A DNA stretch of 15,912 nucleotides from NCBI GenBank assembly GCA_021827225.1, contig JAKAXG010000024.1, positions 1-15,912 on the forward strand, given 5' to 3'. The notes under the pieces were generated by a model. It saw only the letters and a list, made by a program, of their open reading frames with translations. It had not been told where the DNA came from and searched no databases. Each line of letters starts with the position of its first letter. The first letter of the stretch is position 1. A program made the position numbers and the translations under genes. Source of the DNA: Actinomycetes bacterium. Its GTDB lineage: Bacteria; Actinomycetota; Acidimicrobiia; Acidimicrobiales; Palsa-688. This document shows, in pieces, positions 3,606-15,912 of the stretch.

Positions 3606-6600
3606 TCAGCCGACCGAGTAGTTCTGGCCGGGCGACGGCGTCCCGGAGGTCACAGAGAACGCACCGGTGATGCCGGACGGTGAGAGCTTCGCAGGGGCGG
3701 CGGCGGTCGTGGTGGCCTCTTCCCAGTACTGCCCGGGGGCCAGGCCGGCGAAGGTGTAAGGGGTGGCGCCGGCGACCAGGGTCACCACCTGCGGGGTACC
3801 CACCTTGGTGGCGCAGGTGCTGTCCGAGCACAGGGTGACGGTCACGCTGGTGCCGGCGGTGCCGGCGGTGCCGCTGACCGTGCCGGTCAGGCTCCCGCCG
3901 TAGGTGAACGTCGGCCCGGGGGCGGTGCCGCCGGAGGTGACCGTCACCGGGTTGGGAACCCCGCTGGACGTGGCCCCGGTGACCTCGACGTAGTAGCTGC
4001 CCGGGTCCAGGCCGGTGAGGCTGTACGCCCCCGACGTGGGTGCCGAGGTCTTCACCGGGGTGGTGCAGGGGTAAGCGCTGCACACGTCGACCGTCACCGG
4101 CCCGGCCGTGGTGGTGACCGTGCCGGTGATGCCGCCGGTGTAGTCCACCGACACCGGCGCCGAGACATTGGAGCTGCCGATGGAGACCTGGAACGTCGCC
4201 CCGCTGGCGATGGTCAGTGACCCGACGGTGGCGGTGTAGTCGTTCGACGGGTCAGGGTTGACGGAGCTGAAGGTCGCCATACCGCTGGAATTGGTGGTGG
4301 CCGATATGCCCGTGATCGGGGTGAGCGGAGAGTCCGTGATGGTCACCGTCAGGCCGGCGGGGACCGGAGCCCCCGTCGTGGCGTCGGTGACGGTCACCGT
4401 CACCGGTACCGGCGCCGGCGACACGGTAAGGGTGGGGGTGGCGGAGACCGGGCCGGTCGGCGGCGAGGTGGTGGAAAGGTCGACGGTGTCGGTGTTGGAG
4501 GGGCTGTACCCGCTGGTCCCGGTCGACGCCTGGACGGTGTAGCTGCCGAGCGGCAGGTAGTCGCTGGTGTACTGGCCGGTGGAGCCGACGCTGACGGTGT
4601 CGACCGGCCCGGAGGAGTTGCTGAAGGTGACGGTCAGGTCGCTGGGGCTGATGGAGGAGTTCGCCGACACCGCCGCCGTGCCGGTGATGGTGCCCATCAG
4701 GACGGTGAAGGTGGCGCTCGCCGCCGGGGCGGAGGTGGACGTGGCCGGCACGTACTCCGCCACGTTGCCGCCGGGGCAGACGAGCAGGCCGTCGTCGGCC
4801 TGGGCCGGGACGCCCGAGCCGGTGACGGTCAGGTCGTAGAAGTCGGGCACCACCCCGGAGAACGACGCCTTGCCGTTGACCGGCACCGAGGCGGTCTGGC
4901 TGTTGCCGAACCCGGTGGCGGCCAGCGTCCCCCCGTTCGGGCAGGTGAGCGACAGGCCGGTGGGCGGGGTGGCCGGCGACAGGGAAACGGTGTCACCGGT
5001 CAGGCTGACGCCCTTCAGGTTGGTACCGACCGCGACCGAGAGGTTGACCGGGCTGGGGGTCAGCGACACGTCCTGGATGGTGGTCAGCGACGGGGAGGTG
5101 ACGAAGCTCTGCTGGTAGCCCGAGGCGTACTGGTATCCGGCCAGGGTGGCCTCCAGCCGGTAGCTGCCGTCGGTGATCTTCACCGATGAGGCGCTCGGGA
5201 ACTTGTAGGAGCCGTCGGCGCCGGTGGTCATCGAGTCGACCTTGTTGCCCTTGCTGTTGAGCAGTGTCACCACCACGCCGGCCAGCGGGCAGGGGTTCTG
5301 CGCCGGGGTGGCGCACGAGCCGGGGGTGGTGACCGTGCCCTCGACGGTGTCGTAGTTGAGGGTGAGCGACACCGAGGTGGTGCGGGCCTGATCGCCGATG
5401 TGGTAGCCGATGGTCTCGGTGAGGGGGGCGTACTGGGCCAGCGCGAAGCTGTAGGTGTAGGTAGTCGGATCGGGCGCCGGTGTCATCACCGCGGTGCCGG
5501 TGGCGTCGGTGGTGCCGGTGACCGTGCGGCCGATGGTGCTGGTGCCCACGATGGCCACCCCCTGCAGCGGCGTCCCGCCGGCCCCGGTGACGGTGAAGGT
5601 CTGCGGGACCTGGGTGGCGGCCACGTCGATGGGGCTGCCGCCGTTGACGGCGTTGTCGCCGGCCACCACCGTCACCGGGTAGGTGGTGGTCGGGGAGGTG
5701 TAGCCGGCGGGGGCGGTGATGCCCACGCTGTACACCGACGACGGGCAGATGCCGCCGTCGCTGGCCGAGGGGTTGGTGATGGTGAAGGTCCCGTCGGTGC
5801 CGGTGGCCGCCGACAACGTCGCCGGGGTCGCGGCGGCGCTGCAGCCGGTGCCGGCGGTGGTCAGGGTGGCGGTGATCTTGGCGCCGGCCAGGGGGCTGGC
5901 GCTGTTGTAGATCAGCCCGTCGACCAGCCCGCTGAGGTATCCCTCGGCGGTTAGCAGCGGGGCGTCGGTGACGGTCGAGGGGGTGGTGGCCGCCGGGAGC
6001 GTCTCGTGGCTGACCGACGTCTGGTAGCCGGGGGCGGCCACGGTGACGGTGTAGTCGTTCTCGGTGGAGGTGAGATCCCCGATGGTGGCCGTCCCGACCG
6101 ACGAGCTCAGGGGGACGGTGGCCACCGTCTGGCCGGCGCCGTTCTGCACGGTGACCGTCGGGTAGCCCAGGCCGGGCAGCGGGCTGAAGGCGGGGGTGAC
6201 GACCAGCGTGACGTGGGCGGTCAGGCTGATGGCGCCGACGCCCAGGTTGGCGGTCGGGTCGGGGGTGGGCCCGGGGGTGTAGGTGTAGGTGCCGTCGGTG
6301 ACCGTCGGCGGCCCCCCGCCGCCCACGCCCAGGGTGTCGGTGCAGGTGGCGTCGCACAGCGGCACGGAGAAACCCTCCAGCACGGCGGTGTCGTAGCCGG
6401 TGTCGGTGAAGGTGAGGTTGTAGACGCCGGGATAGGCCTCACCGGTGCCCTGGCCCGATTCCTGCCAGACGATGTTGTCGGTGGCCGAGGCGTTGGTGCT
6501 GATCGACAGGCCGGCCGCCGCCGGGGCCACGCTGATCGACGCCCCCACCGGCGACGCCAGGGTGCCGGTGACCGTGCTGGGGTTGGGGGTCAGGGTGAAC

Positions 6601-9105
6601 GCCTGGGTGGCGAAGCCGGCGTCGGTGGTGTTGGTGGCCGAGGAGAAGTGCTGGAAGGCCCCGCCGTCGACGGTGAAGGTGGCCGCCCCCGGGACGGTGC
6701 CGACCAGGGCGGACGCCGGGATGGTCCAGATGCCCGAGCCGCCCACGGTGGTGGCGGGGATCGTGCGGCTGCCGGTGCCGCCGCCGGGTTCGGTGGCGGT
6801 CACGCTGAGGGCCACCACCGCCGGCTCGTCGGCGGCGGACAGCCCCGGACAGGCGCCGACCGCGGTGGCGCTGGCCGCGCAGGTGAGCACGCCGGTCGGG
6901 GTCCGCCACGGGAACGACACGGTGATGCTCACCCCCGGGGTGGGCGGCACCAGCAGGGCGCTGTCGACGGTGGTGTTGTTGTACACCGCGGTGAACGGCG
7001 CCGAGGTCGGCGCGCTGTAGACCACCTTGTTGGAGTCGGTGTAGGTGAACGAGGCGGTGAACGGGGCGCCCACCAGGTTCAGCGGCAACGGGATGTCCAG
7101 CTCGTTGGAGGTGCCGGTCCCGGTGCAGCTCAGGCTGAACCCGGCGCTGGCCGTGCCGGCCACCCCGTTGACGGTGACCGTGACCCCGGGGGTGGGCACG
7201 GGAGCGGTGGCCCCGGCCGGGTAGGTGAAGGTCTTGACCCGGTAGTCGGGCAGGAGGGTGAGCACCGGGCTGGGGTTGGCGGTCCCGGGGGCGCCGTTGA
7301 GCAGCACGTCGACGCCGGGCTGGAGCTGCACCGAGGTGGTGAGAGGCTTGTACGGGCTGGTCCCGGCGCAGCCCCCGGTGCCGCTGACCGGGGGTCCCTT
7401 GACCACCAGGGTGTAGTTGCCGTGGGGCAGGCCGTCGAACTCGAAGCCGCCCTGGGCGGGCGTCGCCCCCGAGGCGGTCGGGTCCGTGACCGGCTGGTAC
7501 ACGATCCCGGTCTGGGCGTTGGTCATGGTCACCACCGGGAAGGGGACCCGGGCGCCGGTCCCGTCGACGACCACCCCGGCCACGCGGTCCAGCTGGGGCA
7601 TGAGGATGGTGGGGGCGAAGGCCAGCGCCCCCAGGGCCAGGGTGACCTGCACGGTGGTGGACTCGAAGGCGACCGGCGCCAGCAGGTGGCTGGCCAGGTC
7701 CAGGCTCTGGCAGGTGGTGGCGGTGGGGCAGTCGGCGGTGACGGTGTGGGTGCCGGGCGCCACGTCGTGGACGGCGAACGCCCCGCTGGCGTCGGTGATG
7801 ACCGAGGTGGGCTGCCCGTCGAGGGATATCTCCGCCCCGACCACCGGCTTGGCGGTGGCCAGGGACTCCACCACCCCCTGCACGGTGCCGGTGGCCAGGG
7901 ACTGCTGGGGCACCGGGGTCAGGCTGAGGTTGACGGTCTGCACCTGGCCGGGGGCCACCGACACCTGGGCCGACACGGTGGCGTAGCCGTACTTCTCGAG
8001 GGTGAGCACGTACTGGCCGGGCGGTACCTGCGGGAAGCTGAAGCTGCCGACGGTGCCGCCGGAGGTGGTGAGGGTCTTGTAGGTGTTCTGCTGGTTGGCC
8101 AGGACGGCCCCGGCTCCGGCCAGCCCGGCGCCCGCCGCGCTGGCCAGCCCGGTGACCTCGGCGGTGGAGGGGGTGACGGTGGCGTTGACCGTGGCGTTGT
8201 CGGTGCTGGGGTCGGAGGTCAGCGAAACCTGCTGGGTCTGGCTGACGTAGCCGGGGCCGGCGATGGTGAGGGCGTAGATCCCCGGTACCGGCAGGTCGGG
8301 CAGGGAGTAGGTGCCGACGGCGCCGACGGTGGTCGTGGTGGTGGTGCGCGACATGGCGGCGTCGGAGATGGTGACGCTCAGGCCGCCGACCGGCTGGCCG
8401 GTCCGGGCCGAGACGACGGTGCCGCCGACCGATCCCTCACCCGGGGTCATGTTCAGGGTGACCGGGCTCTGGCTGGAGCCGGCCCCCAGGGTGACCAGAC
8501 TGGTCTGTGTGCTGTAGCCGGGCAGGGTGGCGGTGATCAGGTAGGTGTCGGGGGTGGTCAGCCCGTGCACCGCCCAGCTGCCCACCGCCCCCACCGTCGG
8601 GGTGCGGGTGGTGAGGCTGACGGTGCCGTCGGTGATGGTCAGCTGCACCCCGCCTAGCGGCCCGTGGGGCCCGTCGACCGTGCCGGACAGGGACCCGGCG
8701 CCGGGGACCAGCCGGGCGGAGAGGCTGAGCGGCTTCCCGTCCCCGGTGACGTCGACCACGTAGTCGGCGGTGGCGTAGCCGGCTTTGGAAAAAGACACCA
8801 GGTAGTACCCCGGCTGACCGATCCCGGCGAAGGCCCAGAACCCGTCGGGGGAGGTGGTGGTGGTCATGGCCTTCAACGGCGTTCCCGGGGTGGGTGCCGA
8901 CGCCGCCGTCAGGGCCGGGCCGTACAGCTTGGTCAGCGGGGCGCTGGTGGCCGAGGTGAGCACGGCCCGCGACGACGCCGGGGCGATGTCGGCGGCGGCC
9001 ACCGCCACCGGGGTGGGGGAGTCGGTCAGCGAGGTGGGCGTCACCGTCACGGTCACCCCGCCGGGGGTGCTGGCCGCCACCTTGCCGCTCAGCCGGCTGG
9101 GCAGC
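3606..9105 (-). repeat. Protein-level array of beta-sandwich repeats in paralog C
   Basis: From the first seed RLSGKVAAS to the C-terminus (about 1830 residues), the protein is almost entirely repeats of roughly 80-100 residues. The consensus runs G-[ST]-[LVI]-x-G-x-V, then P-[LV]-G-G-V-x-[LV]-x-[IV], a DG-x-[FY] or VG-x-[FY] strand, LPPG-x-Y-x-[LV] and x-x-GY. Repeats near the membrane resemble those of paralogs A and B most closely. Those in the middle are longer, Cys-containing and more degenerate. Boundaries are approximate and the exact copy number cannot be counted reliably by eye. Confidence 0.7.
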
Positions 9106-10031
9106 TGCCCGGATCCGGCCCCGCCGCCGGCGACCGAGCCGCCGCCGCCACCGCCCGCTCCACCGGCCCCGCCGGCGGAGCCACCGCCACCGGACGCGCC
9201 GGTCCCCCCGCCGCCGGTCGGCCCAGCCGGCACGGAGGCCGGCGGGTTGTTGTTGGCGGCCTGCTGGTTGGCGCTCTTGTTGACCCGGGAGCTCAAGCTG
9301 GTGATGCCCACCGCCGCCACCGCCACCCACAGGGCGACCACGGCCACGATGGCCACTGCCTTGGTGGCCCACAGCGGCATCATCGAGCGCTGCACGAAGG
9401 CGCCCTCGACGAACACCGGGGTGCCCCGGGTGCGCACCCCGATCACGTAGGGCCGGCGGCGGGGGCTGCCCAGCACCGGGCGGGGCCCGACCAGCCGGGC
9501 CCGGACCCGGACCTCCTGACCGGGGCCGAGCACCTGGGTGGCGCCGGACAGGCGGACCTTCATCTCCCGGTCGGGCGAGGACGGGTCCAGGTCCACCCGT
9601 ACCGGGGTCCGGCCCCGGTTGCGCAGGACCACCTCGGCCCGGCCCCGGCGCCCGCCCCGGGCCTCCGGCGGCTCGAGGGCGGCGGCGACCACCGAGCCGT
9701 CGATGACGGTGAGGTCCAGGTCCCCCGACGCCTGCCCGCCGGTGCTGTCGGTGGCCACCACGGAGGCCACCAGCCGGCTGGGGGGATGGCCGAGGGGGAC
9801 GGTCACCACCACCTCGGTGGTGGCCACCGCCCCCGGGGCCAGCGGCCCGACCGGCGGCGGCAGGTGCACCCACGCCGGGTCCAGGCCGGCGACCGAGACC
9901 GACACGGTGGAGGGGTCGGTGCCCAGGTTGGTGACCGTGACCGCCACCCGGCACGGCGAGCCGGGGGTGATCTCCTCCGCCGCCGTGCGCACCGACAGCA
10001 ACGGGACGGGGTCCATGCCGGGCCCGGTCAC
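3606..10031 (-). CDS. Giant single-pass membrane protein with Ig-like N-terminus and many carboxypeptidase-regulatory-like repeats (paralog C)
   Basis: At about 2141 residues, this is the largest of three adjacent paralogs. Residues about 1-210 form two Ig-like beta-sandwich domains ending in the motif LGSPRRRPYVIGV. One helix follows (about 225-246, AVAIVAVVALWVAVAAV) with Lys224 before it, so the N-terminus should be cytosolic and the rest outside. A Gly/Ser/Ala linker (about 265-310) leads into a very long array of carboxypeptidase-regulatory-like or Cna-B-like units, recognisable by seeds such as SLSGTV, SVGGTV, TVEGTV, GITGTV and SLTGTV and by G-x-Y/P-G-Y strands. Paired cysteines occur at intervals (for example LCDATC, DVCSAYPC, LCSDSTC), suggesting extracellular disulfides. 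There is no C-terminal sorting signal, catalytic motif or second helix. The GTG at 10031 overlaps the upstream TGA by 4 nt and has GGTGA 7 nt before it; an ATG at 10016 is the alternative. Function is inferred: surface scaffold, adhesin or injection-system partner. Confidence 0.85.
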   Translation of the reverse strand: MTGPGMDPVPLLSVRTAAEEITPGSPCRVAVTVTNLGTDPSTVSVSVAGLDPAWVHLPPPVGPLAPGAVATTEVVVTVPLGHPPSRLVASVVATDSTGGQASGDLDLTVIDGSVVAAALEPPEARGGRRGRAEVVLRNRGRTPVRVDLDPSSPDREMKVRLSGATQVLGPGQEVRVRARLVGPRPVLGSPRRRPYVIGVRTRGTPVFVEGAFVQRSMMPLWATKAVAIVAVVALWVAVAAVGITSLSSRVNKSANQQAANNNPPASVPAGPTGGGGTGASGGGGSAGGAGGAGGGGGGSVAGGGAGSGQLPSRLSGKVAASTPGGVTVTVTPTSLTDSPTPVAVAAADIAPASSRAVLTSATSAPLTKLYGPALTAASAPTPGTPLKAMTTTTSPDGFWAFAGIGQPGYYLVSFSKAGYATADYVVDVTGDGKPLSLSARLVPGAGSLSGTVDGPHGPLGGVQLTITDGTVSLTTRTPTVGAVGSWAVHGLTTPDTYLITATLPGYSTQTSLVTLGAGSSQSPVTLNMTPGEGSVGGTVVSARTGQPVGGLSVTISDAAMSRTTTTTTVGAVGTYSLPDLPVPGIYALTIAGPGYVSQTQQVSLTSDPSTDNATVNATVTPSTAEVTGLASAAGAGLAGAGAVLANQQNTYKTLTTSGGTVGSFSFPQVPPGQYVLTLEKYGYATVSAQVSVAPGQVQTVNLSLTPVPQQSLATGTVQGVVESLATAKPVVGAEISLDGQPTSVITDASGAFAVHDVAPGTHTVTADCPTATTCQSLDLASHLLAPVAFESTTVQVTLALGALAFAPTILMPQLDRVAGVVVDGTGARVPFPVVTMTNAQTGIVYQPVTDPTASGATPAQGGFEFDGLPHGNYTLVVKGPPVSGTGGCAGTSPYKPLTTSVQLQPGVDVLLNGAPGTANPSPVLTLLPDYRVKTFTYPAGATAPVPTPGVTVTVNGVAGTASAGFSLSCTGTGTSNELDIPLPLNLVGAPFTASFTYTDSNKVVYSAPTSAPFTAVYNNTTVDSALLVPPTPGVSITVSFPWRTPTGVLTCAASATAVGACPGLSAADEPAVVALSVTATEPGGGTGSRTIPATTVGGSGIWTIPASALVGTVPGAATFTVDGGAFQHFSSATNTTDAGFATQAFTLTPNPSTVTGTLASPVGASISVAPAAAGLSISTNASATDNIVWQESGQGTGEAYPGVYNLTFTDTGYDTAVLEGFSVPLCDATCTDTLGVGGGGPPTVTDGTYTYTPGPTPDPTANLGVGAISLTAHVTLVVTPAFSPLPGLGYPTVTVQNGAGQTVATVPLSSSVGTATIGDLTSTENDYTVTVAAPGYQTSVSHETLPAATTPSTVTDAPLLTAEGYLSGLVDGLIYNSASPLAGAKITATLTTAGTGCSAAATPATLSAATGTDGTFTITNPSASDGGICPSSVYSVGITAPAGYTSPTTTYPVTVVAGDNAVNGGSPIDVAATQVPQTFTVTGAGGTPLQGVAIVGTSTIGRTVTGTTDATGTAVMTPAPDPTTYTYSFALAQYAPLTETIGYHIGDQARTTSVSLTLNYDTVEGTVTTPGSCATPAQNPCPLAGVVVTLLNSKGNKVDSMTTGADGSYKFPSASSVKITDGSYRLEATLAGYQYASGYQQSFVTSPSLTTIQDVSLTPSPVNLSVAVGTNLKGVSLTGDTVSLSPATPPTGLSLTCPNGGTLAATGFGNSQTASVPVNGKASFSGVVPDFYDLTVTGSGVPAQADDGLLVCPGGNVAEYVPATSTSAPAASATFTVLMGTITGTAAVSANSSISPSDLTVTFSNSSGPVDTVSVGSTGQYTSDYLPLGSYTVQASTGTSGYSPSNTDTVDLSTTSPPTGPVSATPTLTVSPAPVPVTVTVTDATTGAPVPAGLTVTITDSPLTPITGISATTNSSGMATFSSVNPDPSNDYTATVGSLTIASGATFQVSIGSSNVSAPVSVDYTGGITGTVTTTAGPVTVDVCSAYPCTTPVKTSAPTSGAYSLTGLDPGSYYVEVTGATSSGVPNPVTVTSGGTAPGPTFTYGGSLTGTVSGTAGTAGTSVTVTLCSDSTCATKVGTPQVVTLVAGATPYTFAGLAPGQYWEEATTTAAAPAKLSPSGITGAFSVTSGTPSPGQNYSVG
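9111..9240 (-). other. Gly/Ser/Ala-rich flexible linker within paralog C
   Basis: Directly outside the transmembrane helix, the protein runs through about 40 residues of almost pure Gly, Ala and Ser, with stretches such as GGGGTGASGGGG and GGAGGAGGGGGG. A linker here would let the long repeat stalk move freely at the membrane or pass through the peptidoglycan layer. The corresponding stretch in paralogs A and B is short and not Gly-rich. Confidence 0.7.
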
Positions 10032-12748
10032 GGGGTGTTCACCGTCAGCGGGTCGGTCGCCGGGTCGCAGGTGCCCGACCCGGCGGTGGTGGTCGAGGTG
10101 GTGGAGGAGGTGGACGGGTTCTGCGACCCGGTGGCCTGGCTGCCGCACACCGGCTGCGCCTGGCCCTGGCTGGTGTGCACCACGACGGTCTCCTGGGTGG
10201 CCGAACCGGCCGGGTAGGAGATGGCCAGCACGTAGTCCTGGGGGGCGTCCACGTTGGTGAAGGTGAACTGGCCGGAGCTGTCGGTCAGCACGCTGGCCAC
10301 GCTCACGGTCGGGTACTGGCTGGCCAGGTACAGCGTCACCTGGGCGCCGGGCACCGCCTGGCTGTGCTTGCTGGCCTGCACCACCGTCCCGTAGATGGAC
10401 GCCGCGGGGGTGAGCTGCGGGTTGTACTGGAACCGCTGGCCGGGGGTCAGGGTCAGGATGGACGAGGTGGGCTGGCCGCCCTGGCGGCTGAAGCTGATGG
10501 TGTAGGTGCCCGGCGTGACCCCGTCGATCTCGTAGGCCCCCGGGGTGGGGCTGTCGGCCGACACCACCTGGTAGGAGCTGGTCCCCGAGCTGAGCAGCAC
10601 GGTCACCTGGTGGACCGGCTGGCCGCCGGTCTGGGTGATGGTCCCGTACACCGCCGCCGTGTCGGGCGCCAGGTCGGCGTCGACGCCGGTGAGGTTCCCG
10701 TTGGTGGACGTGAGGCTCACCGCCTTGGTCTGGGAGGTGAGGTCCGGGCGGGAGAAGGTGAGGGTGTAGTCGCCGGGGTCGACCAGGCCGGTGAGCTGGT
10801 AGGTGCCGACCGGGCCCTGGCTCAGGGTGACGGTGGACGAGGAGGTCTGTCCGTTGGTGGCCGTGACCGTCACCCCGCCGGCCGGGACGCCGCCGCTGGT
10901 GACCGTGCCGGAGACCGACCCGGTGCCGGCCGCCAGCAGCACCGACACGCCGGTCAGCTGCTGGTGGGCGGCCAGGGACAGAGACAGCGTCTGCGACGCA
11001 TACCCCGGCGCTGTCACCACGACCGTCAGGTTGTCGGGGGTGGGCAGGTCGGACAGGACGAAGTCACCGACCGACCCGGGGGTGGTCTCGCTGACGCTGC
11101 TCACCGTTGAGGACCCGTCCGACGCGGCGATGGTCGCCCCACCCAGAGGACCGGACGCGGTGGAGACGCTCCCGCTGATGGAGCCGTCCCCTTTGTGCAG
11201 AGTAATGACCACACCCGAGCGGGTCTCCCCGCCGGCCAGGTTCACCTGCTGGACGGCCGGGGCGTAACCGGACTTGACCACCACCAGGTCGAAGGTGCCC
11301 GGCGACGGCACGTTGCCCAGGGTGAAGTTCCCCGACGAGCTCAGCGTCTGGGCGGTGACGATGGTGGGGCCGGCTCCCTGCTGGGCCGGGGTGGGCGGGG
11401 CGGCCGCCGTCAGGTAGGCGGCGGGGACCATGGCGCCGGCGGCGGTGGCGGCCGTCGAGGCGGGGGCGGTCGCCGATGGCGGGGCGGTGGTGGTCGTCGT
11501 CGGTGCGGTGGTGGCCGGGGTCGGGGACGGGCTGGCCGGGGTGGCGTTCTGGGCGGCGGCGGCCGCGGCGGCGTCACCCCCCGGGCCGGGGACCTCCAGG
11601 GTGAGCACCGCCCCGCTGGGATCGGCGCCCACCACCTGGCCGGTGATGGTGCCGGGCAGCCCGCCCAGCTGGATGTCGATGTTGGCGACCGTCTTGCCCG
11701 CCGACAGGGTGACGGGGGTGGCCCCGGTGGCGGTGAGGCTGTCGGGGTACCACAGCGACGCGAACCCGGCCCCCTGGAACTGCAACTTGTAGGCGCCGGC
11801 GGCCAGACCGGAGAAGTGGTAGCTGCCCTGGGGGCTGGTGGCGGTGGACACGATGGGGCTGGTCAGGTTGGAGGACTGGAAGATCTCCACCGTCACCCCG
11901 CCGACGGGGGTGCCGGTGCTCTGCTGGGCCACCGTGCCCGACACCCCGGCGGTGCCGGCGTTGGCGTTGCCGGCCTGGTTGGCCTGGGCCACCTGCAATG
12001 CCAGGTTGCGGTCGGCGTTGGAGGTGGTGACGACCTGGGACAGGGCCACGGCGATGACCACGGCGAACACCGTCGCCGCGGCCAGCAGCCCGGTGAGGGC
12101 CATGGCCCCCCGGGACAGCCGGGCCTTCTGCACCCAGCTGCCGGCGGCGACCACCGGAGCGCCGGGCGGGCCGGCCACCACCGTGTAGGGGCGGATCTTG
12201 GGGCTGCCGAACCACGGCCGGGGGGCCCGGAGCACGGCGGTGGCGATGCGCTGCTCGCCGGGGCCCACCGCCGGGGTCGCGTCGTTGAACCGGAAGCGCA
12301 CCTCGCCGGTCTCGTCCCGGCCGTCGAGGGCCACGTCGAGGGCGGCGTTGCCGGTGTTCTCCATCATCACCGCCACCGCCGCCTGGCGGCCGGCGGTCAC
12401 GCTGACGGGGTCGAGGGCCAGCTTCAGCCCCGGCTCGGCGGGGACGGTGAGCTCCACGTCCACGACCGTCCGGTCGTGGGGCGGGGTGAGCTCGGTGACC
12501 TCGATGGCCACCGACCGCCGGCCGGCCGGCACCCCGCGGGGCAGGGTGACGGTCACCACGGCCACCCCCGCGGTGTCGGGGAACAGCGACAGCCGCTCCT
12601 GGTCGATGGTGGCCCAGCGGGGGTCCACCCCCAGCACCCGGATCTGGTGACCGCTGATCAGGGTCCCGGTGTTGGCCACCGACACGGTGACGACGGTGGG
12701 CTCGCCCGGGACCGCGGAGAACTGCCTGGGGGTGACCTCGACGCGCAT
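10028..12748 (-). CDS. Single-pass membrane protein with Ig-like N-terminus and carboxypeptidase-regulatory-like repeats (paralog B)
   Basis: This 906-residue protein has two Ig-like domains (about 1-100 and 105-205; PGEPTVVTVSVANTG and VTAGRQAAVAVMMENTGN are their opening strands). The motif WFGSPKIRPYTVV and the basic WVQKARLSRG follow, then one helix (about 217-236, ALTGLLAAATVFAVVIAVAL). Outside the membrane are about six carboxypeptidase-regulatory-like units from AGVSGTV onward. The first contains the WYPD motif shared with paralog A. The second is interrupted by an Ala/Pro/Thr-rich insert of about 65 residues. The C-terminus is a Ser/Thr-rich tail with two cysteines. There is no signal peptide before the helix, no sorting signal and no catalytic motif. 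Its ATG shares one base with the stop of paralog A (TGATG), and its stop overlaps the start of paralog C, so the three are probably translated in tandem. Role inferred: membrane scaffold linked to the adjacent Pvc16-type gene. Confidence 0.88.
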   Translation of the reverse strand: MRVEVTPRQFSAVPGEPTVVTVSVANTGTLISGHQIRVLGVDPRWATIDQERLSLFPDTAGVAVVTVTLPRGVPAGRRSVAIEVTELTPPHDRTVVDVELTVPAEPGLKLALDPVSVTAGRQAAVAVMMENTGNAALDVALDGRDETGEVRFRFNDATPAVGPGEQRIATAVLRAPRPWFGSPKIRPYTVVAGPPGAPVVAAGSWVQKARLSRGAMALTGLLAAATVFAVVIAVALSQVVTTSNADRNLALQVAQANQAGNANAGTAGVSGTVAQQSTGTPVGGVTVEIFQSSNLTSPIVSTATSPQGSYHFSGLAAGAYKLQFQGAGFASLWYPDSLTATGATPVTLSAGKTVANIDIQLGGLPGTITGQVVGADPSGAVLTLEVPGPGGDAAAAAAAQNATPASPSPTPATTAPTTTTTAPPSATAPASTAATAAGAMVPAAYLTAAAPPTPAQQGAGPTIVTAQTLSSSGNFTLGNVPSPGTFDLVVVKSGYAPAVQQVNLAGGETRSGVVITLHKGDGSISGSVSTASGPLGGATIAASDGSSTVSSVSETTPGSVGDFVLSDLPTPDNLTVVVTAPGYASQTLSLSLAAHQQLTGVSVLLAAGTGSVSGTVTSGGVPAGGVTVTATNGQTSSSTVTLSQGPVGTYQLTGLVDPGDYTLTFSRPDLTSQTKAVSLTSTNGNLTGVDADLAPDTAAVYGTITQTGGQPVHQVTVLLSSGTSSYQVVSADSPTPGAYEIDGVTPGTYTISFSRQGGQPTSSILTLTPGQRFQYNPQLTPAASIYGTVVQASKHSQAVPGAQVTLYLASQYPTVSVASVLTDSSGQFTFTNVDAPQDYVLAISYPAGSATQETVVVHTSQGQAQPVCGSQATGSQNPSTSSTTSTTTAGSGTCDPATDPLTVNTP
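11385..11573 (-). other. Ala/Pro/Thr-rich insert inside paralog B
   Basis: The second repeat of paralog B is split by a low-complexity stretch starting with a run of alanines and continuing through PSPTPATTAPTTTTTAPP and further Ala/Thr/Pro sequence. Such mucin-like segments are typical of extracytoplasmic, often O-glycosylated linkers in actinobacteria. This agrees with placing the repeats outside the membrane. The neighbouring paralogs lack the insert at this point. Confidence 0.65.
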
Positions 12749-15006
12749 CACGCCCCCGCCGTGCTGTCGGAGGTGAGGGTGGCCGGGGCGGTGGCGGTCT
12801 GCCCCGGCTGCAGGTGGACCAGCACCGTCGACGACTGGTAGCCGGTGAGGGAGAACGTGACCGAGTAGCTGGCCGCCGGCAGGCCGGTGAGGCTGAACCC
12901 GCCGGCCGGGCTGGACGTGGTGGACGTGGTCCGCACGGTGGTGCCGTCGGTGACCGTGACCTTCACGCCGGTGAGGGTGCCGCCGGCGGACGAGGTGACG
13001 GTGCCGGTGATGGTGCCGGTCAGCGGGGCCAGCTGCACCGCGACGCCGGTCTTCGAGCCGCTCGAGCCGAGCGGGACGGCCACCGTCTGGGACTGGTAGC
13101 CGGCCAGGGAGAAGGTGAGGGTGTAGTCGCCGGGGGTGTTCAGCCCCGACAGCAGGAACGCCCCGACGCTGCCGGCGGTGAGGGTGTGGGTGGTGGGCGA
13201 GGCCGGGGCGTTGTCCACGGTGACCGCCACCCCGCCCAGCGGGGCGCCGGTGGTCGAGTCCACTTGGCCGGAGATCTGCCCGGCCCCTCCTGTCAGCGTG
13301 ACGGACAGGTTGGTCAGCGACTGGCCGGGCCCCAGGTGCTCGGCGACGGTGTCGGTGCCGTAGCCGGGGTCGGTGAAGGTGAGCAGGTAGGTGGCCGGGG
13401 TGGTCAGGTTGGGGATGGTGAACTGCCCCACCGCCCCGGTGGTGGGGGTGGCGGACGTAACGGTCTGGCCGTTGGCGTTGGCGGTGATGGTCACCCCGCC
13501 GAGCGGTTTGGTGCCGTCGGTGACCACCCCGCCCAGCGTGCCCGGCCCGGCCGACATGGTCACGGTGTTGGCGATGTGGGCCTCGCCGCCGGCGATCTCC
13601 TCGGTGTCGGAGGCCACCTGGTAGCCGGGGGCGCTGAAGCTCAGGTCGTAGGTGCCCGGGGCGGGGAGGGCGGCGACGGTGTAGTTGCCCGACGAGTCGC
13701 TGGTGGTGGTGGCCACCGGCTGGCCGCTGCCCTGCTCCGACACCACCGTGACGGTCACCGGCGGGGACGGGGTCTGGCCGGTGTCGACGGTGCCGGTGAT
13801 GGAGCCGGGCAGGCCGGAGATGGTGGTGTTGATGCCGTCGGTGCTGGTCTGGGCGGAGACCTGCACCGGCGTGGCCGCCGACTCCGAGGAGGCGTCGGGA
13901 TACCACTGGTCCTGGTAGCCGGTGGCGGAGAACATCAGCTTGTAGGCGCCGGGCAGGAGGCCGATCAGCGAGTAGCTGCCGTCGCTGGCGGTGGCCGCCG
14001 AGGACACCAGCACCGGCCCGTTCGGGGTGTCGCGCACCGCCTCCACGCTGATGCGGCCGATGCCGGCGCCGGTGCTGGCGGCGCGCACGGTGCCGTTGAT
14101 GGTGCCGCCCACGCCGATGACCACCCCGGACTTCGGTACGGCGCCGGCCGGCATCGGCCCGTCGGTGGCGGCGGCCAGCACCCCGGGCCGGCCCAGCACC
14201 CCGAACGCCGAGGTGTTCACCGGGTGGGTGGCGGCGACGGCCGCGTAGAACGACGGGGGGACCTGCTTGGTGAGCGGGTCGCTGGAGTTGGCCTTGTTCA
14301 GGGCGACGAGGAACACGGCCGCCCACATGGCCACGATGGCGGCCAGCACCACGGTGGTGCGGGCCCCCACGGGGATGATCGGGGCCTGGCGGAGCGAGGC
14401 GGTGGCGTCGATCTCCAGCTCGCCGGCCCGGGCCAGGACCGACACCCGGTGGCGTCTCTCCGAACCGAACAGGTGGCGGCGTCCCTGCACCCGCAGCTCG
14501 GCGTGGGCCTCGGCGCCGGGACCGACGGTCAGCGACGGCGGGTCCACCCGGGCGGCCAGCGTGCGGGCCGGGTCGGCGGCGGCCAGGTCCAGGTCCAGGG
14601 TGGTGTTGCCCTGGTTGGTGGCGGTCACCCGGTAACGGGCCCGGCGGCGGGCCCGGCGGGCGGGCGGGTCGACGGCCAGAGCGGCGGCCGGGGCCGGGAC
14701 CACCTCCACGGTCAGCACCAGCTCCAACCGCTCCGAGCTGTCCACGCTGGACGCCACCTCGACGGTCACCTCGTGGCGGCCGGCGGGGTAGTGGCGGCCG
14801 GCGGTGAAGGTCAGGTCCATCCGGCCGCTCGACCCGGGGAACAGGGCCAGCAGGGCGGGCAGGCAGGTAGCGGTCAGGCCGTCACCGGTTCTGGCGCCGG
14901 CGGTGACACCGTCGATCACCGCCAGGGTGTTGGTCACCTCGATCACGGCCACGCCCGGCTGGCCGGGGGCCAGCAGCAGCGTTTCGGTGATCAGGGAGGC
15001 GCGCAT
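12748..15006 (-). CDS. Single-pass membrane protein with Ig-like N-terminus and five carboxypeptidase-regulatory-like repeats (paralog A)
   Basis: This 752-residue protein is the simplest of the three paralogs. Two Ig-like domains occupy about residues 1-100 and 105-205. The motif LFGSERRHRVSVL precedes a basic segment and one helix (about 217-236, TTVVLAAIVAMWAAVFLVAL), predicting a cytosolic N-terminus. After a linker of about 65 residues come five clear repeats of 85-100 residues, starting at INGTVRA, ITGTVDT, LGGVVTD, ISGQVDS and ITGTVTS; each ends near a GY-x-x-x-x-V-x-L strand. The first carries QWYPDA. It begins 22 nt after the Pvc16-type gene. The region before its ATG is C-rich with no Shine-Dalgarno sequence, so translation probably depends on coupling to the upstream gene. 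The ATG fits the N-terminus of paralog B (both reach PG at residues 14-15). No enzyme motif is seen; carboxypeptidase in the fold name refers only to the regulatory domain. Confidence 0.88.
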   Translation of the reverse strand: MRASLITETLLLAPGQPGVAVIEVTNTLAVIDGVTAGARTGDGLTATCLPALLALFPGSSGRMDLTFTAGRHYPAGRHEVTVEVASSVDSSERLELVLTVEVVPAPAAALAVDPPARRARRRARYRVTATNQGNTTLDLDLAAADPARTLAARVDPPSLTVGPGAEAHAELRVQGRRHLFGSERRHRVSVLARAGELEIDATASLRQAPIIPVGARTTVVLAAIVAMWAAVFLVALNKANSSDPLTKQVPPSFYAAVAATHPVNTSAFGVLGRPGVLAAATDGPMPAGAVPKSGVVIGVGGTINGTVRAASTGAGIGRISVEAVRDTPNGPVLVSSAATASDGSYSLIGLLPGAYKLMFSATGYQDQWYPDASSESAATPVQVSAQTSTDGINTTISGLPGSITGTVDTGQTPSPPVTVTVVSEQGSGQPVATTTSDSSGNYTVAALPAPGTYDLSFSAPGYQVASDTEEIAGGEAHIANTVTMSAGPGTLGGVVTDGTKPLGGVTITANANGQTVTSATPTTGAVGQFTIPNLTTPATYLLTFTDPGYGTDTVAEHLGPGQSLTNLSVTLTGGAGQISGQVDSTTGAPLGGVAVTVDNAPASPTTHTLTAGSVGAFLLSGLNTPGDYTLTFSLAGYQSQTVAVPLGSSGSKTGVAVQLAPLTGTITGTVTSSAGGTLTGVKVTVTDGTTVRTTSTTSSPAGGFSLTGLPAASYSVTFSLTGYQSSTVLVHLQPGQTATAPATLTSDSTAGA
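12750..14110 (-). repeat. Five-unit beta-sandwich repeat array in paralog A
   Basis: Residues about 300-752 form five consecutive carboxypeptidase-regulatory-like units of similar length. They are the cleanest copies in the window and define the consensus used to recognise the more diverged ones: G-x-[IL]-x-G-x-V, LGGV-x-[IV]-T, a G-[AS]-V-G-x-[FY] or DG-[SN]-Y strand, LPAPG-x-Y-x-L-x-F, GYQ and a closing V-x-L. Unit five ends almost at the C-terminus, so nothing follows the repeats. Confidence 0.75.
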
Positions 15007-15028
15007 GAGGGGGCGGGCGGGGCCGGGC

Positions 15029-15724
15029 CTACTGGGGCCCGGACGTCCGGGTCTCGCTCGCCCGGGTTTCCCGCGTCACCGTGCCGGTCCGCCGCAGCCG
15101 GCGGGGGGTGGAAGGCTCGGTGGCCACCCAGCGGGCGGTCGCCGCCGGTACGGGCGGGGCCGGCGCGGCCATCGACGGGTCGATGCCGACGTCGATGCTG
15201 GTGGGCGGGGCGGCGGTGGCCTGCCATGCGTGTACAGGCAGAGCGGCTGTCACTGTGAGCTGCAGGCCGGGCTTGAGCCGGCCGCCGAGGGCCGACCAGA
15301 ACTCCCCGGGGACCCGGTCGCCGGCCGGCGCCAGGGAGATCTTCCCCGGGCCTTCGATGACGCCGGCGGGGACGGCCCCGTCGGGCAGCTGGCCCTTGGC
15401 CATCACGGACTGGAGGATGCTGCCGAGCAGCTGGTGCTCGTCGCGCACCTCGGTGGCCCAGGCGGTGATCAGGTACTGGAAGTCGACGGCCGGGTTGACC
15501 AGCCGGCGCTCGATGCCACCGTCGCCGTGGCGCTGGTCCAGGCCGGTCAGGGCGGTCTGGGAGGAGCGCGACAGATCCCAGAGGAACACGTTGACGGTGG
15601 GACGGTTGAGGGCGGCCCCCCATGCCTTGTCCGGCGTCTCGAACGACACTCCGATGGAGGACTCCGGCAGCGGGACCTGCTCACGCAGGAATTGCTCCAG
15701 AGCCCGGTCTATGAAGTTGATCAC
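15029..15724 (-). CDS. DUF4255 / Pvc16-family protein of a contractile injection system
   Basis: This 231-residue protein matches the Pvc16_N (DUF4255) family, a tail-terminator component of eCIS particles such as Afp and PVC, where it caps the sheath-tube end. Visible family features are the N-terminal helix MINFIDRALEQFLREQV, the strand pair SIGVSFETPDKAW, the NRPTVNVFLWDLSRS segment, VDFQYLITAWATEVRDEHQLL, and then a helix leading to LP-x-G. The domain runs to about residue 185. The remaining tail is Pro/Ala-rich and then basic (RRLRRTGTVTRETR). The GTG start at 15724 is supported by a strong AAGGAG site 8 nt upstream. It is the first gene of a four-gene minus-strand run with the three repeat-stalk membrane proteins. 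No sheath, tube, baseplate or ATPase gene lies inside the window; if the assignment is right they should lie beyond 15912 or elsewhere on the chromosome. Confidence 0.9.
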   Translation of the reverse strand: MINFIDRALEQFLREQVPLPESSIGVSFETPDKAWGAALNRPTVNVFLWDLSRSSQTALTGLDQRHGDGGIERRLVNPAVDFQYLITAWATEVRDEHQLLGSILQSVMAKGQLPDGAVPAGVIEGPGKISLAPAGDRVPGEFWSALGGRLKPGLQLTVTAALPVHAWQATAAPPTSIDVGIDPSMAAPAPPVPAATARWVATEPSTPRRLRRTGTVTRETRASETRTSGPQ

Positions 15725-15823: not shown

Positions 15824-15912
15824 AGAGCCTTTTGGCCGTTTTTGTGCCTGATTTCGGCGGTTGGGGCGGCCGGGCCTGGGTTTTTGCCGGCGGCCGGCCT
15901 GCTGATCCGGCT

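What the first reader, a model, noticed from the sequence alone, without database searches (positions are those of the whole stretch)
3606..15724. Pvc16-type gene followed by three large membrane-anchored repeat-stalk proteins: possible membrane-docking module of a contractile injection system
The DUF4255/Pvc16 family is established as a tail-terminator of eCIS particles. Here it heads a same-strand run with three proteins, each predicted to have a cytosolic Ig-like head, one helix and an extracellular stalk. Some actinobacterial injection systems stay in the cytoplasm and need a membrane partner; from memory, Streptomyces CisA is such a single-pass protein. I infer that these paralogs could be an independent membrane-docking, triggering or surface-reaching module. 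That step is inference; the gene order and topology are read from the sequence.
Basis: partly seen in the sequence, partly recalled or inferred. Interest (0 to 1): 0.82.

Follow-up and report, generated by a model that had tools for sequence, protein, structure and literature searches.

The report
Membrane trio beside an injection-system gene
Three related proteins, each predicted to cross the cell membrane once, are encoded beside a part of a phage-tail-like injection machine; they may hold that machine at the cell's own membrane or trigger it there, though their known relatives have been described as its toxic cargo, so this is a rereading that can be tested.

Summary
On the minus strand: a Pvc16/DUF4255 cap gene, then three coupled genes (s1 752 aa, s2 906 aa, s3 2141 aa), each an Ig-like (PapD/ASH kind) two-domain head, one TM helix and a stalk of CarboxypepD_reg repeats. 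The window has no other eCIS gene and no genome is held for it. Relatives give the setting: DUF4255-s1-s2-s3 recurs in 10 other loci, 9 with sheath, VgrG and baseplate genes on the same contig; in 4 the eCIS operon runs into the trio. s1, s2 and s3 form three clades, so the trio is old.

The heads belong to a published family, that of Streptomyces Sco4256-4258, called CIS effectors or putative toxin. They are not CisA. Across the family head and TM stay while the outer part changes (PASTA, peptidoglycan-binding, ricin lectin, ChW, an unnamed small domain, repeat stalks, nothing); in Deinococcus a kinase and an FHA domain precede the head. I judge docking or triggering at the producer's own envelope likelier (0.50) than cargo (0.30); the published empty-lumen phenotype of the triple mutant speaks for cargo. 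New variant of a known kind.

The parts
15029..15724 (-). DUF4255 / Pvc16-type tail-terminator (Cis16-like cap) gene, 231 aa, GTG start
   Evidence: Pfam PF14065 E 1.5e-25; PDB 9gts_0A E 1.5e-23
14371..15006 (-). s1 head: two Ig-like (PapD/ASH kind) beta sandwiches, predicted cytosolic
   Evidence: AF2 pLDDT 93.8; fold matches; alignment A1
14299..14355 (-). s1 transmembrane helix core (residues 218-236)
   Evidence: hydropathy 2.67; helix 213-241
12751..14298 (-). s1 outer stalk, CarboxypepD_reg repeats
   Evidence: Pfam, 5 stretches; AF2 pLDDT 78.8; 42-80% identity over residues 301-752 in 14 homologues
12098..12748 (-). s2 head
12041..12097 (-). s2 transmembrane helix core (residues 218-236)
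   Evidence: hydropathy 2.54
10031..12040 (-). s2 outer stalk, CarboxypepD_reg repeats
   Evidence: Pfam, 6 stretches
9360..10031 (-). s3 head
9303..9359 (-). s3 transmembrane helix core (residues 225-243)
   Evidence: hydropathy 2.82
3609..9302 (-). s3 outer stalk, about 1900 aa with CarboxypepD_reg and related beta repeats
   Evidence: Pfam, 12 stretches

Best explanation
The three genes encode single-pass membrane proteins of the Sco4256-4258 family that belong to an actinobacterial cytoplasmic contractile injection system. Shown by sequence: head, one TM segment, repeat stalk, an old three-part set, and its tie to DUF4255 and eCIS loci in relatives. Inferred: the head lies in the cytosol and touches the particle (baseplate or cap); the stalk reaches into or through the cell wall and senses or grips it; the trio thus docks free particles at the producer's own membrane and licenses or triggers firing there. 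Which particle part the head binds, and what the stalk binds, are not known.
For: eCIS genes on the contig of 9 of 10 other trio loci, sheath within about 30 kb. In G069, G129, G221 and G232 sheath, tubes, VgrG, baseplate J, DUF4255, s1, s2, s3 follow on one strand, downstream of the baseplate, where eCIS usually encode tail fibres and S. coelicolor encodes CisA (PMC12237407, passages). s1, s2, s3 each one clade of 11. Outer domains found by Pfam in family members: PASTA 3, PG_binding_1 2, ChW 2, ricin lectin 2, out of 13 short-type proteins that I picked for scanning. Two Deinococcus copies have kinase and FHA domains N-terminal to the head, in eCIS loci, which puts the head on the cytosolic side. 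K+R are more before than after the TM over 54 rows (2.28 against 1.69, P 0.005, related rows). No N-terminal hydrophobic segment passes the scan in the trio; no LPxTG, no DUF4157. DUF4157 genes, a mark of CIS cargo or its adaptors, lie apart from the trio in 5 of 9 trio loci (G002, G004, G119, G232, G388). For the related S. lividans particle the cargo was reported as Sle1 with Sle2 (PMC13277306, section 5), by description another kind of protein. s3 keeps head and TM where the stalk is gone (347 and 300 aa).
Against: In S. coelicolor the sco4256-4258 triple mutant has mostly empty lumens (about 85% empty; wild type about 97% filled), and the proteins are toxic in E. coli, read by the authors as effectors (PMC10066040, passages); docking does not predict an empty lumen. 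Sco4256 was in all three particle preparations of PMC10020575. Particles were seen free, not at the membrane (PMC10066040; rare membrane contacts in PMC12237407). CisA already has that role in Streptomyces, and 6 genomes have a CisA-like gene and a head gene. Heads far from eCIS genes: G119 (two), G037, G231; none found at all in G097, G162, G194. L006 is a trio whose MAG gave no sheath hit. No DUF4157 hit in G069 and G221, and only on other contigs in G003 and G129. In the window itself K+R before/after the TM are 2/2 (s1), 3/1 (s2), 2/2 (s3), so its own topology is not settled by charge. In 4 of the 5 relatives with the convergent layout a baseplate gene comes within 3 kb of the end of s3 (G002, G003, G119, G388); the window shows 3.6 kb there without one. 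No interaction was computed.
Confidence: 0.5

Rival explanations
1. The three proteins are effectors: loaded in the tube lumen and released on contraction, where TM and outer part harm the producer's own envelope, as proposed for Sco4256-4258.
For: Same family: an HMM of the three window heads alone matches 120 of the 120 listed relatives of a Streptomyces ricin-type protein (1465 found, best 120 listed), among them the 'hydrolytic protein' of S. coelicoflavus at E 2e-31. Published: empty lumens and no nisin-induced death in the triple mutant, toxicity in E. coli (PMC10066040); Sco4256 in particle preparations (PMC10020575). No DUF4157 hit in two trio genomes, G069 and G221.
Against: No DUF4157 or named toxin domain in the trio. 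s1 homologues run 746-804 aa, within a search that admits 413-1316 aa, and are conserved along the whole stalk. Outer PASTA or PG_binding_1 domains and N-terminal kinase/FHA fusions suit a resident membrane protein. The phenocopy of CIS mutants is equally expected of a docking factor.
Confidence: 0.3
2. Surface stalks or wall scaffolds that share an operon with the eCIS but do not act in docking, firing or delivery.
For: Neighbouring + strand genes are a class F sortase and an L,D-transpeptidase; head copies exist away from eCIS; CarboxypepD_reg repeats are common in surface proteins (established knowledge).
Against: DUF4255 directly upstream of s1 in 11 of 11 trio loci read, six of them not found through DUF4255; eCIS genes on the contig in 9 of 10 besides the window; no LPxTG in the trio.
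Confidence: 0.12
3. The window holds a leftover: DUF4255 and trio without a working eCIS in that genome.
For: No other eCIS gene in 15.9 kb; the s3 side carries L,D-transpeptidase and sortase genes instead of the baseplate seen there in its nearest kin.
Against: Intact coupled frames with strong GC3; AAA (G002, G003, G004, L001) or the eCIS operon (G069, G129, G221, G232) lies on the DUF4255 side in relatives, which is beyond base 15912 here; the contig is 25,930 bases long, so about 10 kb is unseen.
Confidence: 0.07

Closest known systems
Sco4256, Sco4257, Sco4258 of S. coelicolor (PMC10066040, PMC10020575)
   Same: Adjacent paralogues in a CIS cluster, shared N-terminal domain with pilus-chaperone-like fold, one TM, variable C-terminal part; the window-head HMM matches Streptomyces relatives at E 2.3e-16 or better
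   Different: Ricin-like ends in 4257 and 4258; here stalks of about 500 to 1900 residues, three separately inherited subtypes, genes next to DUF4255. The Sco sequences themselves were not in hand.
CisA / Sco4242 (PMC12237407)
   Same: Single-pass membrane protein of a CIS with cytoplasmic N-terminus, proposed to bring particles to the membrane; gene downstream of baseplate genes
   Different: CisA has a largely unstructured N-terminus and a small C-terminal domain; the trio head is an ordered two-domain fold and the outer part a repeat stalk
Cis16/Pvc16 cap protein
   Same: The DUF4255 gene is a plain member
   Different: Nothing notable beyond its place before the trio
T6SS membrane complex and thylakoid-anchored CIS (recalled, and named in the introductions of PMC12237407 and PMC12998442)
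   Same: A membrane partner for a phage-tail-like machine
   Different: No comparison was run

Membership tests
Sco4256-4258 family of CIS-associated bitopic proteins | Shared N-terminal domain, pilus-chaperone-like | tested here: met
Sco4256-4258 family of CIS-associated bitopic proteins | One TM helix after the N-terminal domain | tested here: met
Sco4256-4258 family of CIS-associated bitopic proteins | Encoded in an eCIS (type IId) locus | tested here: inconclusive
   Only DUF4255 in the window; eCIS genes on the contig in 9 of 10 other trio loci; the IId subtype was not tested by phylogeny
Sco4256-4258 family of CIS-associated bitopic proteins | Acts as CIS effector | not testable with these tools
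   reported for S. coelicolor (PMC10066040)
CisA | Sequence homology to CisA | tested here: inconclusive
   One S. clavuligerus protein taken for CisA by place and layout matched none of the called trio-locus or window ORFs at E 0.1 and nothing in 9 trio genomes, but also nothing in 15 of 21 other genomes
CisA | Largely unstructured N-terminal region | tested here: not met
   s1 head pLDDT 93.8, two beta sandwiches
CisA | Single-pass protein with cytoplasmic N-terminus | tested here: inconclusive
   One TM met; side by prediction and by the Deinococcus fusions only
Pvc16/Cis16 tail terminator | Pvc16_N domain over the cut-off | tested here: met
   90.4 bits against 27
DUF4157-type eCIS cargo | eCIS_core (DUF4157) domain | tested here: not met
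   absent from s1, s2, s3 at E up to 1
Sortase-anchored surface proteins | LPxTG-type sorting signal | tested here: not met
   no LPxT[GA] in s1, s2, s3

The most novel reading that the evidence does not exclude
Cytoplasmic CIS of many actinobacteria have their own membrane-and-wall complex made of three fixed paralogues whose heads dock the particle and whose rods read the cell wall; Sco4256-4258 are its Streptomyces form and have been taken for effectors, and the Deinococcus kinase-FHA fusions are a phospho-controlled form.
Probability: 0.3. Interest if true: 0.82.

Novelty: new variant of a known kind. Interest (0 to 1): 0.6.

Why it matters
How a cytoplasmic CIS meets the membrane is open. 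CisA is the one factor shown to matter, and a close homologue is missing from many loci (24 of 30 genomes here with one query; Roseiflexus in PMC12998442). A family that joins one constant head and TM to changing wall-facing domains would be a candidate partner in loci without CisA, and would change the reading of proteins now listed as effectors. The three clades give three defined parts to test.

Tried and rejected
Rejected: sortase substrates; chance reading frames; CisA as family, by layout, with the sequence test inconclusive. A tape-measure role of s3 is unlikely, as its length runs from 300 to over 3200 aa among relatives. Fold search gave many PapD/ASH/Ig-type matches and no CIS protein in the rows shown, which excludes nothing. 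Paper supplements were not read. Literature searches that found no paper: 'extracellular contractile injection' with 'carboxypeptidase regulatory', 'contractile injection system' with 'PASTA domain', 'contractile injection system' with 'Acidimicrobi' and 'membrane', 'hydrolytic protein' with 'contractile injection' and 'Streptomyces'.

Limits: the genome search scored at most 6 or 13 head candidates a genome, so head counts are lower bounds. The phylum and order samples share genomes, and G004 and G003 are their own centres, not random draws. Genomes are related, so P values are not strict. L001-L004 and L006 were found with DUF4255 as bait. For outer domains I chose 10 of the 30 loci, partly because the outer part looked like a known domain; there the commonest outer part is a small beta-looking domain that had no Pfam match in the two copies scanned (L042, L047). 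Gene calls in fetched contigs are my own GC-based choice and miss some genes: window s1, DUF4255 in G002 and G004, s1 in G004, s2 of G388 (taken from L034 for the tree). The 54 rows leave out window s1 and hold G129 s2 twice.

Full report
What is there. The window carries, on the minus strand, a DUF4255/Pvc16 gene (15724..15029) and three long genes, here s1 (15006..12748, 752 aa), s2 (12748..10028, 906 aa) and s3 (10031..3606, 2141 aa). The frames are open, GC3 is 0.92-0.98, and s1/s2 and s2/s3 overlap (TGATG, GTGA), so translation is probably coupled. DUF4255 is a plain Pvc16_N protein (E 1.5e-25) and matches PDB chain 9gts_0A, a Pvc16 N-terminal domain protein (E 1.5e-23); the code 9GTS occurs once in PMC12237407 (count, passage not shown), which describes the S. 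coelicolor CIS and its Cis16 hexamer cap. The rest of the window, on the + strand, is a class F sortase, a membrane protein without family and an L,D-transpeptidase.

Setting in relatives found with DUF4255. The bait found six loci. L001, L002, L003, L004 and L006 carry s1 next to it, L002, L003, L004 and L006 the whole trio; L005 (Chloroflexota) has no trio but a stalkless head protein 21 kb further on its contig. In G002, G003 and G004 two tube genes, LysM, VgrG, baseplate J and, except in G004, gp25 were called, convergent with the trio, and an AAA ATPase divergent from DUF4255 (with the S. clavuligerus eCIS genes as references).

Finding by heads. A profile of 16 heads over 396 genomes of the phylum gave 61 with E 0.001 or better, 27 with E 1e-20 or better. 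Sheath was in 37 of the 396 (34 over the cut-off), DUF4255 in 30 (29 over the cut-off). Of the 27, 22 have sheath (P 9e-22) and 24 have DUF4255 (all but G097, G162, G194). Six DUF4255 genomes have no strong head: G052, G103, G134, G141, G212, G305. Of 53 strong head places in the 27 genomes, 34 lie within 30 kb of a sheath hit and 38 within 30 kb of sheath or DUF4255 on one contig; 15 do not. Some of the 15 are on small contigs, but G119 (two), G037 and G231 have copies 0.49 to 2.1 Mb away on the same contig, and G097, G162 and G194 have neither sheath nor DUF4255 hits. In an overlapping sample (198 genomes of the order of G003) 33 have heads at E 1e-20, 33 have sheath, 25 both, 8 heads only, 8 sheath only (P 3.8e-18). 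The head family is strongly tied to eCIS but not confined to it.

The trio. In the phylum sample seven genomes (one of them the centre, G004) have three heads in a row with DUF4255 just upstream on the same strand and sheath on the same contig: G004, G069, G119, G129, G221, G232, G388. With G002, G003, L006 and the window this makes 11 trio loci. In the 9 with sheath on the contig, VgrG and baseplate J were called in 9, tubes in 8 (not G388), LysM in 8 (not G129), gp25 in 6 (not G004, G232, G388). The tenth, L006, is a 13.7 kb contig of a MAG without a sheath hit. G437 in the order sample looks like a twelfth, with sheath on the contig; G482, G506 and G557 have two or three such heads on small contigs and sheath on other contigs (not read). 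In G069, G129, G221 and G232 sheath, tubes, VgrG, baseplate J, DUF4255, s1, s2 and s3 follow on one strand; in G002, G003, G004, G119 and G388 the trio faces the eCIS operon. A tree of 54 heads puts s1, s2 and s3 in three groups of 11, each one side of a branch (supports 89/93, 94/92, 94/81; 0 of 500 shuffles as low). The trio is an old set with fixed members. The window's s1, s2 and s3 each group with those of L002, L003 and L004. In these three and in G388 and G119 the baseplate gene comes after s3, within 3 kb in all but G004; the window shows 3.6 kb there without one, so its layout differs from that of its nearest kin.

Family. Streptomyces eCIS loci carry shorter proteins with the same head and TM: S. 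clavuligerus 'hydrolase' (L012; E 6e-14 to s2), 'hydrolytic protein' of Streptomyces sp. NBC_01324 and two neighbours in G199, which is Streptomyces sp. NBC_00704. tblastn of the s2 head against plasmids hit 24 records: Streptomyces 18, Deinococcus 4, Streptantibioticus 2. Of the regions opened with annotation, those of S. clavuligerus, NBC_01324 and the two Deinococcus plasmids hold eCIS genes, while that of NBC_01471 holds none within 15 kb; the S. cattleyicolor record has no annotation there. Outer parts by Pfam: PG_binding_1 (S. clavuligerus, G252), ChW (NBC_01471, G199), ricin lectin (G375, G199), PASTA (G084, G106, G130), nothing named in NBC_01324, G098 and G113. Of the PASTA three only G084 has head and sheath within 30 kb on one contig. 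The two G199 heads are nearly alike (path 0.09) while one protein ends in ChW and the other in ricin lectin. L060 (G034, no sheath hit) has a caspase domain before half a head. In two Deinococcus plasmids the head sits in 1613 and 1602 aa proteins after a protein kinase and an FHA domain and before a TM, among eCIS genes; the head match there is modest (E 4e-5 and 4e-4).

What is published. PMC10066040 (passages) reports Sco4256-4258: single TM, highly similar N-termini, ricin-like ends in 4257 and 4258, toxic in E. coli, triple mutant with mostly empty lumens and without nisin-induced death; called effectors. PMC10020575 (passages) finds Sco4256 in all three particle preparations, relatives in 90% of 105 Streptomyces class IId eCIS and in other Actinobacteria, Cyanobacteria and Chloroflexi, rarely outside eCIS regions, with a chaperone-like first domain; it calls it a putative toxin. 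PMC12237407 (abstract, outline, passages) describes CisA, a different bitopic protein needed for contraction. PMC13277306 (section 5 and passages) reports Sle1 with the DUF4157 protein Sle2 as cargo of the related S. lividans particle. PMC12998442, PMC8213781, PMC11126660, PMC9282665 and PMC12402492 were seen in passages, PMC13314943 in the search listing. The window heads belong to the Sco4256 family by proxy: an HMM of the three window heads alone matches all 120 listed relatives (of 1465 found) of the G199 ricin-type protein, the 'hydrolytic protein' of S. coelicoflavus at E 2e-31; SCO4257 bears the name 'hydrolytic protein' in a table of PMC9282665. SCO4256-4258 themselves were not in hand.

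Mechanism. The constant part is head plus TM; the outer part varies from nothing to about 3000 residues, and where I found a named domain it is of wall- or sugar-binding type (PASTA, PG_binding_1, ricin lectin by established knowledge; ChW from recall). The Deinococcus fusions put kinase and FHA on the side of the head, hence the head in the cytosol; charges around the TM agree over 54 rows (30 higher before, 11 equal, 13 lower) but not clearly in the window. That is the layout of a receptor or anchor, with the particle inside and the wall outside. A CisA-like protein of S. clavuligerus, taken as such by place and layout, found a match in 6 of 30 genomes, none of the 9 with a trio; but 15 of the 21 others lack it too, so its absence is no mark of the trio. 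Where CisA is missing the trio could do its work; in the six it could act beside it. In s1 the stalk is more conserved than the head in 14 of 14 homologues (for example 80% against 77%, 59% against 45%), which suggests a fixed outer partner. Separate DUF4157 genes lie in 5 of 9 trio loci, on other contigs only in G003 and G129, and none was found in G069 and G221; so a separate cargo is likely in some loci and unseen in others. Against this reading stands the empty lumen of the S. coelicolor triple mutant. A docking factor could change loading indirectly, but that is a patch, not a prediction.

Verdict. Observation confirmed; eCIS link shown in relatives, not in the window's own genome; family known; the three-part long-stalk form with its own clades is a new variant; docking is the likelier but unproven role.

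Noticed in passing
L060:2-1588 (G034): A caspase (Peptidase_C14, E 1.6e-16) domain precedes the second half of a head and a TM; G034 has no sheath hit. A death protease on the same membrane head would be worth a look.
   Followed up: no
L029:16738-21579 and L030:13738-18546: Deinococcus eCIS loci encode kinase-FHA-head-TM proteins of about 1600 aa with a long outer part without a Pfam match over the cut-off.
   Followed up: partly
L002:10307-11350 and L003:15926-16828: s3 has lost its stalk: head, TM and a short tail (347 and 300 aa), while s3 elsewhere has up to more than 3200 aa.
   Followed up: partly
L068:2299-6887 (G129): Two further head proteins lie on the other side of the sheath, five heads in one eCIS locus; the one scanned has CarboxypepD_reg repeats.
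   Followed up: partly
L013:11456-13072 (G002): A DUF4157 protein of 538 aa lies next to the short s3, a candidate cargo protein; its C-terminal half has no Pfam match.
   Followed up: no
L042-L057 (several): A small outer domain with a recurring NFRDLDYHF-like stretch ends many short-type head proteins; the two copies scanned (L042, L047) had no Pfam match there.
   Followed up: no
window:119-871 and L028:20796-21509: Class F sortase genes lie near the head genes both here and in Streptomyces sp. NBC_01324, though the trio has no sorting signal.
   Followed up: no
window:3284-3605: Between the convergent s3 and L,D-transpeptidase genes lies a 12-base perfect inverted repeat (GGACACGATCTT...AAGATCGTGTCC) and a direct repeat of about 30 bases; it could be a two-way terminator (read by eye in the sequence).
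   Followed up: no
window as a whole: The protein table gives 25,930 bases as the longest contig of s1, so about 10 kb of this contig may lie outside the window.
   Followed up: no
G005:C114:54015-61174: In a Chloroflexota eCIS locus the stalkless head protein lies between a Cache-domain membrane protein and a WD40 protein.
   Followed up: no
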